From Diadema setosum (taxonomy: Eukaryota; Echinodermata; Echinoidea; Diadematoida; Diadematidae): DNA of 64,000 nucleotides. The stretch spans positions 19,461,206-19,525,205 of the forward strand of contig NC_092693.1 of NCBI RefSeq assembly GCF_964275005.1, read 5' to 3'. A program made the position numbers and the translations under genes. A model generated the notes under the pieces. The model had not been told where the DNA came from, ran no database searches, and saw only the letters and a program-made list of their open reading frames with translations. Positions 12,097 through 31,545 of the stretch are shown piece by piece; the stretch's first letter is position 1; each line of letters begins with the position of its first letter.

Positions 12097-12126
12097 TCAG
12101 TCAAAAATCCACTCCTCATAGTATGC
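12097..12126 (-). CDS. Peptide precursor terminal exon
   Basis: Acceptor attttttcttgtccaacag, then AYYEEWIFD and TGA (12099-12097). Phase 0 agrees with exon 11. The acidic, aromatic C-terminal peptide after the last KR would be [13 protein letters not shown]. Confidence 0.72.
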   Translation of the reverse strand, partial: AYYEEWIFD

Positions 12127-30100: not shown

Positions 30101-31545
30101 ATGTCGAGAACGTTTACTTTATTGCTTGAATGGTAGCTCTGTCTAGGCTTAGGAAGAGCTTCATCCACGCAACCTTCAGTTTTCAATACTTCAACTTTAA
30201 TTTTTCATTTCCAATAAATAAACAGGGAAAATTATATACAATGCATTAACAGAACATATTTGTTACAATTTCGAAAACGTACATGTGATCACGAGTGACA
30301 ACATAAATTCATTTTCTAAGGTATATGCATATGCATAATACAAGGATTGGAATGGAAATGGAGGGTCCCACTAAAAAGCAAAGCTTGTAGGGAATGGGAC
30401 CCTCGGAAAAATCATAAGAGAACACTAAATGAAACTACAAACATTATGTGAAACAAAATTAAAGAAACCAATGTCAACTGACATAAAATCAACTTAGGAA
30501 GTAAAAAAACAAGGAAAAAGGAAGACGATTCACTAATTAATATGAAATGGAATAGTAAATGACAATATAAGTTATATAATGAAAACAATAAGGGCGGTGA
30601 GTTGGCTCAGTCGGTAGTGCGTCTGCCTCACGATCACGCGGCTCGGGTTCGAACCCGAGTCTGGACTGAGCAATGTTGTGTGTAAGCATACCGTCCCCTC
30701 TAGCAAGAGGCAAAACACTCTGTCCCTCAGATAGGACATAAAATGGAGGTCCCGTGTATGAGAGAGTAACAACTCATGCACGTAAAAGAACCCGCTTCAT
30801 TTATTCATCGCAAAGAGCAGGGTGTTTAACCCGGTGAAGTGGTCCCACGTCACATCCAACTGGACCCCATGGAAGACCAGCTTAACATAGCTGAATTTAT
30901 GGGCTATCCAGCCATCTTCACAGATGGAAAATGAACAAACAAACAAACAAATAAACAATGCGATTCTCTCTAATTCCCAGAAACAATACATACATACACA
31001 CACATTATCGTTTGTCTCGCAGAAAACAAAACAAAACAAAACAAAAATGCTTATATTTAAGTGATTGAAAGATACAATATTATAGCAAGAACGAAAGTTG
31101 ACATTTCAACACAACAAAGACTATGCAGAAAGAAGGAAAAGTAATACAGAAGAACCCAGTTACTTCTTCAAGAAAACATGATCGTGGAATTAATGGTAAT
31201 TAGTATAATAATGCACATTTTTTACCCCGCTTGATGCAAAGTTTCTAAGCGTCTTACAAAATTTCATTCAAAACGAACACTACATGCGAGTGATATGTGG
31301 GTCATGATTATCACAACCAACCAACCAACCAAACAAACAAACAAACAAACAATAATATAAATCAAAGCAAAGAGAGTCCCTATGAGAACAAAATACACTG
31401 TATACTCACGTCCACCCCGCTGGGTACGTAAAATCCGGTTTAACGTTTGAAGGACGTAAGAGTCTTCGTCTGCGAAATCGGATCTAGACAAATCGACAGT
31501 GGAAACAAAGACGAGGCATGCTAGTATCAAACTTGATGTAATCAT
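12097..31545 (-). CDS. Secreted multi-peptide precursor with tandem repeat exons, family not recognised
   Basis: Twelve minus-strand exons, all with GT-AG borders and compatible phases, give one 277-residue frame. Plus-strand coordinates in transcript order: 31545-31410, 26639-26562, 20700-20654, 20012-19947, 18469-18401, 17648-17577, 16899-16831, 16159-16094, 15419-15351, 14648-14583, 12683-12618, 12126-12097. Residues 1-21 look like a signal peptide (hydrophobic [13 protein letters not shown]). RTQR (40-43) is a furin-type site. Residues 44-72 form a four-cysteine segment (Cys 47, 52, 65, 68) ending G-GKR, an amidation plus dibasic signal. Residues 88-268 are eight 22-24 residue exon repeats; seven carry GYPE and a KR site. 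The C-terminal peptide is [13 protein letters not shown]. The whole resembles a neuropeptide, hormone or defence-peptide prohormone; function is inference. Exon 1 could be preceded by a non-coding exon. Confidence 0.75.
12127..12617. other. Peptide gene last intron
   Basis: It contains a (TA)n then (GT)n microsatellite at about 12385-12450. The short frames there are repeat artefacts. Confidence 0.6.
12385..12450. repeat. (TA)n(GT)n microsatellite
   Basis: About 19 TA units followed directly by about 14 GT units. Confidence 0.9.
12618..12683 (-). CDS. Peptide precursor repeat exon 11 (diverged)
   Basis: 66 nt, phase 0, strong acceptor (ctcttttctcttgaacccgccag). It encodes [20 protein letters not shown], then ED. 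It keeps GYPE and KR but differs from the array copies at many sites, so it is an older relative. Confidence 0.77.
12811..12955. repeat. Long (TA)n(GT)n microsatellite
   Basis: About 47 TA units then interrupted GT units. It yields spurious repeat peptides on the plus strand. Confidence 0.92.
14275..14464. mobile_element. Pogo-like MITE in array unit
   Basis: Ends AGTTGAAACTCGATATAAAG and CTTTATACTGGGTTTCCACTG with adjacent TA. Co-duplicated copies lie at 15055-15227, 15809-15968, 16535-16707, 17291-17450 and 18087-18273. Confidence 0.7.
14583..14648 (-). CDS. Peptide precursor repeat exon 10
   Basis: 66 nt, phase 0, acceptor tccatgttag, donor AAT|gtaaga. AKYGLAM, then [15 protein letters not shown]. 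Confidence 0.75.
15055..15227. mobile_element. Pogo-like MITE in array unit (copy 2)
   Basis: Begins CAGTTGAAACTCGATA and ends TTTATACTGAATTTCCACTG with TA on both sides. It has a deletion near the left end compared with the 15809 copy, shared with the copy at 16535. Confidence 0.65.
15351..15419 (-). CDS. Peptide precursor repeat exon 9
   Basis: 69 nt, phase 0. LVGSGVAM, then [15 protein letters not shown]. It matches exon 7 throughout. Confidence 0.75.
15809..15968. mobile_element. Pogo-like MITE in array unit (copy 3)
   Basis: CAGTTGAAACTCGATATAAA to TTTATACTGAGTTTCCACTG, flanked by TA. This copy shows the best-kept ends. Confidence 0.7.
16094..16159 (-). CDS. Peptide precursor repeat exon 8
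   Basis: 66 nt, phase 0, acceptor tccatgttag. AKYGIAM, then [15 protein letters not shown]. It differs from exon 10 by one residue (I for L). Confidence 0.75.
16535..16707. mobile_element. Pogo-like MITE in array unit (copy 4)
   Basis: Almost identical to copy 2 including its left-end deletion, as expected if the 1.5-kb block was duplicated as one piece. Confidence 0.65.
16831..16899 (-). CDS. Peptide precursor repeat exon 7
   Basis: 69 nt, phase 0. It opens LVGSGVAM, then [15 protein letters not shown]. Identical to exon 9 at the base level, so it is a very recent copy. Confidence 0.75.
17291..17450. mobile_element. Pogo-like MITE in array unit (copy 5)
   Basis: Almost identical to copy 3. 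Confidence 0.65.
17577..17648 (-). CDS. Peptide precursor repeat exon 6
   Basis: 72 nt, phase 0, acceptor gactatatcag, donor AAT|gtaaga. It opens MVGNGRVI and ends EEKRAKDRN; it has one extra codon (R) before the final N compared with its neighbours. Confidence 0.75.
18087..18273. mobile_element. Pogo-like MITE in array unit (copy 6)
   Basis: A more diverged member of the same intron-borne family. Confidence 0.6.
18401..18469 (-). CDS. Peptide precursor repeat exon 5
   Basis: 69 nt, phase 0, acceptor tatccgactag, donor AAT|gtaaga. It opens LVENGGAA, then [16 protein letters not shown] second AG four bases into the exon would shift the frame, so the first is chosen. Confidence 0.75.
18994..19184. 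mobile_element. Pogo-like MITE, opposite orientation
   Basis: CAGGAGTGGAAACTCGG at the left and TATCGAGTTTCCACTA at the right, with TA beside both. The interior reads in the reverse direction relative to the array copies (TATCAGTAGTCAATAAA), so it is a separate insertion or an inverted unit. Confidence 0.6.
19185..19946. other. Peptide gene intron 4, rest
   Basis: Short AAG and CA repeats near 19460-19490. No exon or named element found. Confidence 0.5.
19947..20012 (-). CDS. Peptide precursor exon 4 (diverged repeat)
   Basis: 66 nt, acceptor acccaggaacag, donor GACAGA|gtaaga. It encodes [20 protein letters not shown] followed by DR. The other two phases contain stops. It has the same length as later repeat exons and a dibasic KR, but no GYPE. 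Confidence 0.75.
20013..20653. other. Peptide gene intron 3
   Basis: It contains CA-rich stretches (20250-20310), a short GAT/ATA microsatellite (20346-20370) and a minus-strand SINE at 20357-20608 joined to a C13/A11 tract. Confidence 0.6.
20357..20608 (-). mobile_element. tRNA-derived SINE
   Basis: Read on the minus strand it begins GCGCTGTGGCATAGTGG (box A-like TGGCATAGTGG) and has GAGTTCGAGTCCC (box B). A tRNA-unrelated body follows, ending in CTACCCTGGATAAATAAGACC and an ATT/ATC-rich tail. It has an internal pol III promoter layout but does not fold as a functional tRNA. Confidence 0.75.
20654..20700 (-). CDS. Peptide precursor exon 3 (amidation and dibasic site)
   Basis: 47 nt, acceptor ctctgcacgacag, donor CTTTA|gtaagc. 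It gives [16 protein letters not shown]. Its length (3n+2) converts the phase left by exon 2 into the phase-0 repeats, which is strong support that it belongs here. Confidence 0.72.
21331..23027 (-). repeat. LINE tandem unit 1
   Basis: 1697-bp unit running from AAAGGAAAGAAGG to ATCATAACCAGC plus a short CAAACC filler. The same reading blocks recur at equal spacing in units 2 and 3. Confidence 0.93.
23028..24725 (-). repeat. LINE tandem unit 2
   Basis: 1698-bp unit. By eye it differs from unit 1 only in one A-run. All open frames repeat with identical translations. Confidence 0.93.
24726..26418 (-). repeat. LINE tandem unit 3
   Basis: The third unit. It continues without a junction into the upstream LINE sequence ([11 protein letters not shown]), so it holds the original 5' side of the element. 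Confidence 0.9.
26562..26639 (-). CDS. Peptide precursor exon 2 (four-cysteine segment)
   Basis: 78 nt, acceptor tcttttcgcag, donor CCTG|gtaagtc. Read in the phase left by exon 1 it gives [15 protein letters not shown] and [11 protein letters not shown]. The cysteine spacing is C-x4-C-x12-C-x2-C. The other two phases are also open, so the phase choice rests on exons 1 and 3. Confidence 0.72.
27076..27457. mobile_element. TIR element with 5-bp target duplication (copy 2)
   Basis: The same family as 1639-1991, inserted in the opposite direction. Ends are CATGGCCGGCG and CGCCGGCCCTG, flanked by CATTG (27071-27075 and 27458-27462). Internal landmarks match copy 1 after reverse complementing: AAAAGTGGGGCCCACTTCCG, GGGTTTCATGAGCTAAC, then two more CTTCCGGGTT motifs and a GTGGGGCC block near the other end. 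Confidence 0.85.
27780..30045 (+). mobile_element. Non-LTR retrotransposon (CR1/jockey-like), 5'-truncated
   Basis: Reverse-transcriptase sequence on the plus strand: [14 protein letters not shown] (about 27.93 kb), [95 protein letters not shown] and [10 protein letters not shown]. The FADD catalytic box is intact. The longest frame is 28263-28862 (199 residues). Frameshifts lie on both sides, near 28130-28260 and after 28860. The endonuclease region is missing. The 3' end is near AATAAAGTACTTATCAAAC (about 30020-30040). It is antisense to the peptide gene. Confidence 0.88.
30597..30960 (+). mobile_element. tRNA-derived SINE, full-length looking
   Basis: It begins GGGCGGTGAGTTGGCTCAGTCGG with box A TGGCTCAGTCGG. 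GGTTCGAACCCGAG supplies box B. A body of about 280 bp follows (GCAATGTTGTGTGTAAGC, CATGCACGTAAAAGAACCC), then GATGGAAAATGAACAAAC with a (CAAA)n tail. The same family lies at 48304. Confidence 0.82.
31410..31545 (-). CDS. Peptide precursor exon 1 (signal peptide)
   Basis: ATG at 31545-31543; donor GGAC|gtgagt. It encodes [17 protein letters not shown], then an acidic stretch DFADEDSY and [12 protein letters not shown]. It ends with one base (C) of a split codon. This is the only ATG-opened signal-peptide-like frame in the region. Confidence 0.75.

What the first reader, a model, noticed from the sequence alone, without database searches (positions are those of the whole stretch)
12097..31545. 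Undescribed-looking secreted peptide precursor built from tandem single-repeat exons
Seen: 12 minus-strand exons with consensus splice sites join into a 277-residue frame. It has a signal peptide, furin and KR sites, and seven repeats with GYPE followed by KR, each on a separate phase-0 exon of 66-72 nt. Family knowledge: one-peptide-per-repeat with dibasic spacers is the layout of neuropeptide, pheromone and some host-defence precursors. Inference: processing would release about 20-residue peptides such as AKDN-AKYG-type peptides ending [10 protein letters not shown] recognise no family. Changing the number of exons would change peptide dosage.
Basis: partly seen in the sequence, partly recalled or inferred. 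Interest (0 to 1): 0.92.

Follow-up and report, generated by a model that had tools for sequence, protein, structure and literature searches.

The report
Sea urchin exon-per-repeat peptide precursor
A sea urchin genome appears to hold an unrecognised gene for a secreted precursor that would be cut into a set of about 20-residue peptides, one per small exon, so adding or skipping an exon would change the peptide mix without breaking the protein.

Summary
Twelve minus-strand exons (31545-12097) join into one open frame of 279 aa (reader: 277): signal peptide, RxxR site, four-cysteine segment ending GGKR, seven GYPE repeats each followed by KR, short acidic tail. Seven GYPE sites against 0.23 expected. 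Each repeat has its own 66-72-nt phase-0 exon, but each ~20-residue peptide straddles an exon border (AKDN | ...GYPEAANEE).

Six units are tandem exon+intron duplications. Across them the exon's second half is nearly frozen (2 of 42 positions vary; introns 35%), while its first half varies almost only by amino-acid changes (suggestive).

The host is a sea urchin. No second copy was found in it, and no relative in Pfam above cut-off, the PDB, prokaryote or viral contigs; no animal proteome was searchable. The same genome's TRH-type precursor keeps 17 copies in one frame, so one repeat per exon is unusual, not unprecedented: schistosome micro-exon genes and echinoderm calcitonin genes are partial parallels.

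Best reading: a multi-copy secreted peptide precursor of unknown family, probably signalling. Transcription, cleavage and function are inferred.

The parts
31410..31545 (-). Exon 1 (136 nt): ATG, signal peptide [20 protein letters not shown]..., acidic stretch, RILRTQR (RxxR) site; ends in phase 1
   Evidence: highest 12-residue hydropathy 2.84 at residues 6-17; donor rank 10 of 1061
26562..26639 (-). Exon 2 (78 nt, phase 1-1): four-cysteine segment [27 protein letters not shown] (first and last codons shared with neighbours)
   Evidence: acceptor rank 7 of 965, donor rank 2 of 1061
20654..20700 (-). Exon 3 (47 nt, phase 1-0): completes [16 protein letters not shown]
   Evidence: weakest donor (rank 116 of 1061)
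19947..20018 (-). Exon 4 (72 nt, phase 0-0): [24 protein letters not shown]
18401..18469 (-). Repeat exon 5 (69 nt, 0-0): [23 protein letters not shown]
17577..17648 (-). Repeat exon 6 (72 nt, 0-0): [24 protein letters not shown]
16831..16899 (-). Repeat exon 7 (69 nt, 0-0): [23 protein letters not shown]
16094..16159 (-). Repeat exon 8 (66 nt, 0-0): [22 protein letters not shown]
15351..15419 (-). Repeat exon 9 (69 nt, 0-0): identical to exon 7
   Evidence: 69/69 nt
14583..14648 (-). Repeat exon 10 (66 nt, 0-0): [22 protein letters not shown]; one nucleotide from exon 8
12618..12683 (-). Repeat exon 11 (66 nt, 0-0), most divergent copy: [22 protein letters not shown]
   Evidence: 68-75% exon identity to exons 5, 6, 7, 8 and 10
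12097..12126 (-). Terminal exon 12: AYYEEWIFD stop
   Evidence: best-scoring of 11 candidate terminal acceptors
14089..18846 (-). Tandem array of six exon+intron units (about 740-820 bp); a two-exon block (exons 7+8) is repeated as exons 9+10 about 1.48-1.51 kb on

Best explanation
A sea urchin gene for a secreted multi-copy peptide precursor. The signal peptide sends the 279-aa chain into the secretory pathway; prohormone-convertase-type enzymes cut at RxxR and at each KR. This would release a four-cysteine peptide (possibly amidated, from ...GSPGG-KR), one first repeat peptide of 33 residues, and six of 20-22 residues. Five of the six begin AKDN, AKGN or AKDRN and end GYPEAANEE around a variable middle; the sixth ends GYPEGAREA. 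The peptides most likely act as extracellular signals (neuropeptide, hormone or pheromone type). Because exons 4-11 are all phase 0-0, exons can be added, lost or possibly skipped without shifting the frame, and each exon border inside a peptide joins one exon's AKDN to the next exon's variable core. Shown: anatomy, duplication history, conservation pattern, no second copy found in the genome. Inferred: transcription, cleavage, amidation, signalling role, exon skipping.
For: Anatomy and phases; GYPE 7 against 0.23 expected; 8 of 12 enumerated symmetric open exons are exons 4-11. The longest run invariant in all six units is 31 nt, in the exon (next longest 15, in intron); 2 of 20,000 shuffles of intron columns give such a run. 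2 of 42 positions vary in the exon's second half against 187 of 528 intron columns (binomial P 3e-6; none of 486 intron windows is as low). KR follows GYPE in 7 of 7 repeats. All seven repeat exons are multiples of 3 nt, whereas 63 of 258 pairwise intron indel cells are. The only strongly hydrophobic segment is N-terminal (12-residue maximum 2.84 there, 0.63 beyond residue 30). The same genome codes two recognised echinoderm precursors with the same KR logic: NGFFFGKR x2 and TRH-type QYPGGKR x16 + QFPGGKR x1.
Against: No transcript or peptide data. Synonymous sites are also low in the frozen half (pS 0.047, pN 0.012), so gene conversion or splicing constraint could explain part of it. Overall exon identity is not clearly above intron identity. 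Exon 3 has a weak donor. The repeat peptides have no amidation signal and match no known family. No orthologue could be sought in other animals.
Confidence: 0.62

Rival explanations
1. A secreted repetitive protein that stays whole or is only partly cut (for example a mucus, jelly or matrix protein); the KR pairs are incidental.
For: Repeat arrays with Gly-rich segments occur in structural proteins (general knowledge); no amidation sites in the repeats; the frozen half could be structural.
Against: KR follows every GYPE repeat, including the divergent seventh (EAKR); an RxxR, GGKR and KRR punctuate the N-terminal part; lengths and charges of the predicted products are peptide-like.
Confidence: 0.18
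2. A diversifying secreted immune or defence gene whose tandem exons generate variants, like schistosome micro-exon genes.
For: Symmetric short exons after a signal exon; block duplication; variable half with pN 0.326 against pS 0.048.
Against: With KR removed by hand from the fragments the six repeat peptides carry about -1 to -3 and the first about -6; no cysteine; only one locus found; the excess of changes at codon positions 1+2 is not significant (Fisher P 0.066), and the half is no more variable than intron (102 of 501 intron windows as variable).
Confidence: 0.1
3. An egg-jelly sperm-activating peptide precursor of a lineage without speract.
For: Sea urchin; multi-copy Gly-rich peptides; no exact speract or resact coding pattern in the genome; a speract-like protein query gave nothing better than E 2.4, and that locus is a Gly-rich 66-bp tandem repeat.
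Against: No sequence likeness to speract or resact (by eye); KR punctuation and one-repeat exons are not, as recalled, those of the speract precursor; absence of exact patterns is weak evidence.
Confidence: 0.06
4. A decayed or untranscribed locus whose open exons survive by recent duplication and chance.
For: Exons 7 and 9 are identical and 8 and 10 nearly so, so the array is young in part; with no second copy there is no paralogue test.
Against: 7 of 7 repeat exons are open with usable splice sites although flanking intron differs by up to about 22% between units and carries many frame-breaking indels; the more divergent exon 11 is also open; the frozen 31-nt run.
Confidence: 0.04

Closest known systems
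Echinoderm TRH-type precursor (same genome, C2:43893628-43894110)
   Same: Multi-copy precursor, KR between copies
   Different: 16 QYPGGKR and 1 QFPGGKR in a single 310-aa open frame with amidation glycines; here one repeat per exon and no amidation glycine in the repeats
Echinoderm pedal peptide/orcokinin-type precursors
   Same: Multi-copy; bounded by dibasic sites; not amidated in starfish and mostly not in S. purpuratus (PMC6586643, section 25 read)
   Different: A. japonicus peptides are of the form FG...MDPL... and end in an amidation glycine; no significant likeness (best of this family P 0.087 by shuffling); AjPPLNP has 2 coding exons
Calcitonin-type precursors of sea cucumber and brittle stars
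   Same: Skipping a coding exon removes a peptide (PMC6586643 and PMC5627052, passages read; the brittle-star 'exons' are inferred from transcripts there); cysteine-containing, amidated peptide
   Different: Two cysteines and C-terminal Pro-amide there; four cysteines and predicted ...SPG-amide here; no Pfam match for this segment; two CT peptides at most in the passages read
Schistosome micro-exon genes (MEGs)
   Same: Signal peptide, then many short exons mostly of length divisible by three (PMC10526429, passages read); a title cited there reports tandemly repeated 81-base exons
   Different: No KR-bounded peptide repeats in the passages read; flatworm genes; no sequence comparison made

Membership tests
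Multi-copy neuropeptide-type precursor (kind, not a family) | N-terminal signal peptide | tested here: met
   Hydropathy only; no signal-peptide predictor was available
Multi-copy neuropeptide-type precursor (kind, not a family) | Several related peptides bounded by dibasic sites | tested here: met
   KR after 7 of 7 GYPE repeats
Multi-copy neuropeptide-type precursor (kind, not a family) | Expression in neurons or endocrine cells, peptide release | not testable with these tools
   No transcript or peptide data
Pedal peptide/orcokinin type | Sequence likeness of the repeat peptide | tested here: not met
   Three sea cucumber peptides printed in PMC6586643 compared: best shuffle P 0.087 within 72 comparisons in all; S. 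purpuratus peptides were not available
SALMFamide | C-terminal F-amide motif; phase-0 intron between signal-peptide exon and peptide exon | tested here: not met
   No such motif and first intron in phase 1; the intron feature is from passages of PMC9793003
Calcitonin type | Two N-terminal cysteines and C-terminal Pro-amide | tested here: not met
   Four cysteines, ends ...CGSPGGKR; no Pfam match
TRH type | Short QxP(G)-type copies with amidation glycine | tested here: not met
   Absent here; the genome's TRH-type frame lies elsewhere
Speract/resact sperm-activating peptides | Recognisable SAP sequence (recalled) | tested here: not met
   No such sequence in the precursor (by eye); exact patterns absent from the genome and so from this locus
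Micro-exon gene (architecture) | Short exons of length divisible by three after a signal exon | tested here: met
   Exons 4-11, 66-72 nt, phase 0-0
Micro-exon gene (architecture) | Exon skipping yields protein variants | not testable with these tools
   No transcripts
Micro-exon gene (architecture) | MEG sequence motifs | not tested
   No comparison made

The most novel reading that the evidence does not exclude
An echinoid-lineage peptide family whose gene is an exon cassette: block duplication and possibly splicing of phase-0 exons set both the dose and the make-up of a peptide cocktail. Exon borders placed inside the peptide join a constant N terminus to a variable core, and the core is under diversifying selection while the C-terminal GYPEAANEE is held fixed.
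Probability: 0.27. Interest if true: 0.75.

Novelty: new variant of a known kind. Interest (0 to 1): 0.52.

Why it matters
The multi-copy precursors looked at here mostly carry their repeats in one exon, where copy number can change only by events inside that exon. A precursor built of in-frame single-repeat exons would let splicing as well as duplication tune peptide dose and variety, and shows one way repeat precursors can grow. It also gives a concrete, testable candidate for an unassigned ligand family in sea urchins; that echinoderms have many orphan receptors is general knowledge, not checked here.

Tried and rejected
Rejected: the Pfam hits UBA (E 0.00087), B2 (0.0016) and DUF7402 (0.4), all below their curated cut-offs and over the repeats (UBA again at 0.0075), and the one PDB hit, D-allose kinase at E 1.5. 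The single 'GYPEAA' paper hit, a clinical review, was not opened and is taken as a letter-string accident. Weak likeness of the cysteine segment to AjKP2 (shuffle P 0.0115) is expected among 72 tests. A plus-strand stretch [15 protein letters not shown] at 44486 (E 0.016 with the exon 11 query) lies in the helicase gene region and was not added. A recalled likeness of CSNLGC...[11 protein letters not shown] to vertebrate calcitonin was dropped: cysteine number and C terminus do not fit and Pfam gives nothing. Formal positive selection is not claimed: Fisher P 0.066, and the variable half is not more variable than intron.

Led nowhere: prokaryote contigs (98 pattern matches, 0 confirmed), viral contigs (4, 0 confirmed), papers for the peptide strings, and the sea urchin peptidomics paper PMC4857251 (0 hits for four strings in its main text).

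In one search the sub-counts for the exon halves were wrong because of an offset error in my script; one search replaces them. One search counts 13 variable columns in the first half on a hand-made codon alignment, one search counts 14 on the MAFFT alignment.
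Full report
What was checked. Twelve exons at 31545-31410, 26639-26562, 20700-20654, 20018-19947, 18469-18401, 17648-17577, 16899-16831, 16159-16094, 15419-15351, 14648-14583, 12683-12618 and 12126-12097 join into 840 nt: 279 residues and a TGA. All internal borders are GT-AG. Introns 1 and 2 are phase 1; all later introns are phase 0. The GYPE codon pattern occurs seven times in the window, only here, against 0.23 expected. 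A low-stringency tblastn of four repeats and exons 1, 2 and 4 across the window (best 14 hits per query viewed) showed no further repeat exon that I would add.

How solid each exon is. With approximate splice matrices (recalled, generic) and thresholds taken from the model's own weakest sites, 54 open internal exons of 40-150 nt exist in 19.7 kb. Only 12 of them are length-divisible and open in phase 0, and 8 of those are exons 4-11. Exon 2 has the second-best donor of 1061 and the seventh-best acceptor of 965. Exon 3 is weakest (donor rank 116 of 1061). Of 11 open phase-1-to-0 candidates between exons 2 and 4, ten lie in the LINE array and the only other is exon 3, which completes GGKR. The terminal exon has the best acceptor of 11 candidates. 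An ATTAAA lies at 11877.

Anatomy of the product. One strong hydrophobic segment lies at the N terminus. Then follow RILRTQR, a segment with four cysteines ending [28 protein letters not shown], and the repeats. Cutting at basic pairs gives a first repeat peptide of 33 residues ([33 protein letters not shown]), then [124 protein letters not shown], and a tail [13 protein letters not shown] (fragments, KR removed by hand). The exon border lies after AKDN, AKGN or AKDRN, so each of these six peptides is coded by two neighbouring exons. Cleavage is inferred.

Duplication history. Exons 5-10 lie in tandem units of about 740-820 bp that include intron; self-comparison shows matches at offsets 798, 1589, 2319, 3071 and 3824. 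Exon 7 equals exon 9 (69/69 nt) and exons 8 and 10 differ by one nucleotide. Sequence after exon 6 matches that after exon 8 at 388 of 399 positions. So a two-exon block was copied recently. Exon 11 is a more divergent, presumably older copy: 68-75% exon identity to the five copies tested (5, 6, 7, 8, 10), 60-nt flanks 56-78%. Each unit carries a similar element whose ends look like a pogo-type MITE (recognised by eye).

Conservation. In an alignment of six units, 187 of 528 ungapped intron columns vary. In the exon's second half 2 of 42 vary (binomial P 3e-6; 0 of 486 intron windows as low), and in the first half 14 of 27 (P 0.059 for more than intron; 102 of 501 intron windows as variable). 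The 31-nt invariant run is twice the next longest (15 nt). Over the five distinct copies, pooled over ten pairs, the first half has pN 0.326 and pS 0.048, the second half pN 0.012 and pS 0.047. Variable columns by codon position in the first half are 5, 6 and 2 of 9 (Fisher P 0.066). Pairwise counts are not independent, and the start of the exon aligns uncertainly because the acceptor lies at different places in different units. I read this as real coding constraint on [12 protein letters not shown] plus a suggestion, not proof, of diversification in the core. Gene conversion may also contribute. Of 258 pairwise intron indel cells, 63 are multiples of three; the 5 exon cells are all multiples of three but reflect one inserted codon.

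Where it is. The window lies in a 912,680,840-base assembly of 102 contigs. NGFFFGKR occurs twice head to tail on C18, the only two matches of a pattern that would also have taken the starfish and sea cucumber forms. NGFFFamide is the sea urchin NG peptide and starfish have NGFFYamide (PMC4772807, passages); the sea cucumber has an NGIWYamide precursor (PMC6586643, Table 2). A tektin exon matches a chain of PDB 8snb at 115 of 123 residues, another at 95 of 115; that 8snb is S. purpuratus sperm is recalled. The animal is therefore a sea urchin, apparently not S. purpuratus itself.

Relatives. No second copy was found in the genome: 9 of 9 matches (12 candidates scored) and 7 of 7 matches at E up to 10 (8 scored) fall on this locus; the tool scores only the best candidates. 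Nothing reached cut-off in Pfam, the PDB gave one hit at E 1.5, and prokaryote contigs and viral contigs gave no confirmed relative. 'Not in print' means only this: the strings [45 protein letters not shown] and PEAANEEKR gave no relevant paper in open PMC text (one hit, a clinical review, not opened); figures and supplements were not searchable. In 72 shuffle tests against peptides printed in papers read here nothing stood out (best P 0.0115).

Architecture compared. In Table 2 of PMC6586643 (section 43 read) the sea cucumber neuropeptide genes have 1 to 5 coding exons (one row gives none). SALMFamide copies sit in one exon in sea urchin and starfish (PMC4313774, passages), though the sea cucumber SALMFamide genes have an extra intron within the peptide region (PMC9793003, passages). 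In this same genome 16 QYPGGKR and 1 QFPGGKR lie in one 310-aa frame. One repeat per exon is thus unusual among the echinoderm genes looked at. Partial precedents are calcitonin-type genes, where skipping an exon removes a peptide (PMC6586643 and PMC5627052, passages), and schistosome micro-exon genes (PMC10526429, passages). A search for papers on tandemly repeated exons in neuropeptide precursors listed none in point among the 10 of 703 shown, nor among 12 of 14; these were judged from the listings only.

Verdict. A real-looking secreted multi-copy peptide precursor of unknown family, found once in its genome, with an unusual exon-cassette build. Signalling is the likeliest role; an uncut structural protein is the main rival. 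All functional steps are inferred.

Noticed in passing
window 21326-26462: Three head-to-tail copies (period about 1,698 bp) of a LINE-like reverse-transcriptase fragment inside intron 2, 99-100% alike over most listed stretches and 88% in one outer stretch; true array and assembly artefact were not distinguished.
   Followed up: no
window 28134-28862 (+): Separate reverse-transcriptase ORF (RVT_1, E 1.7e-33) in intron 1.
   Followed up: no
window about 19180-19000 and once per repeat unit: MITE-like element with pogo-style ends (recognised by eye) carried along in the exon duplications.
   Followed up: no
window about 37200-62750 (+): Exons of the splicing helicase DHX38/PRP16: one frame matches PRP16 chains, others have helicase domains.
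   Followed up: partly
window 57289-58530 (-): Long low-complexity Ile/Thr-rich open frame of 413 aa inside the helicase gene region, probably a simple repeat.
   Followed up: no
L026 (C2:43893628-43894110): TRH-type precursor frame with 16 QYPGGKR and 1 QFPGGKR.
   Followed up: partly
L030 (C16:14758897-14759217): 66-bp tandem repeat, Gly/Trp/Pro-Glu-rich on one strand, next to what look like exons of another gene (by eye); not a speract gene.
   Followed up: partly
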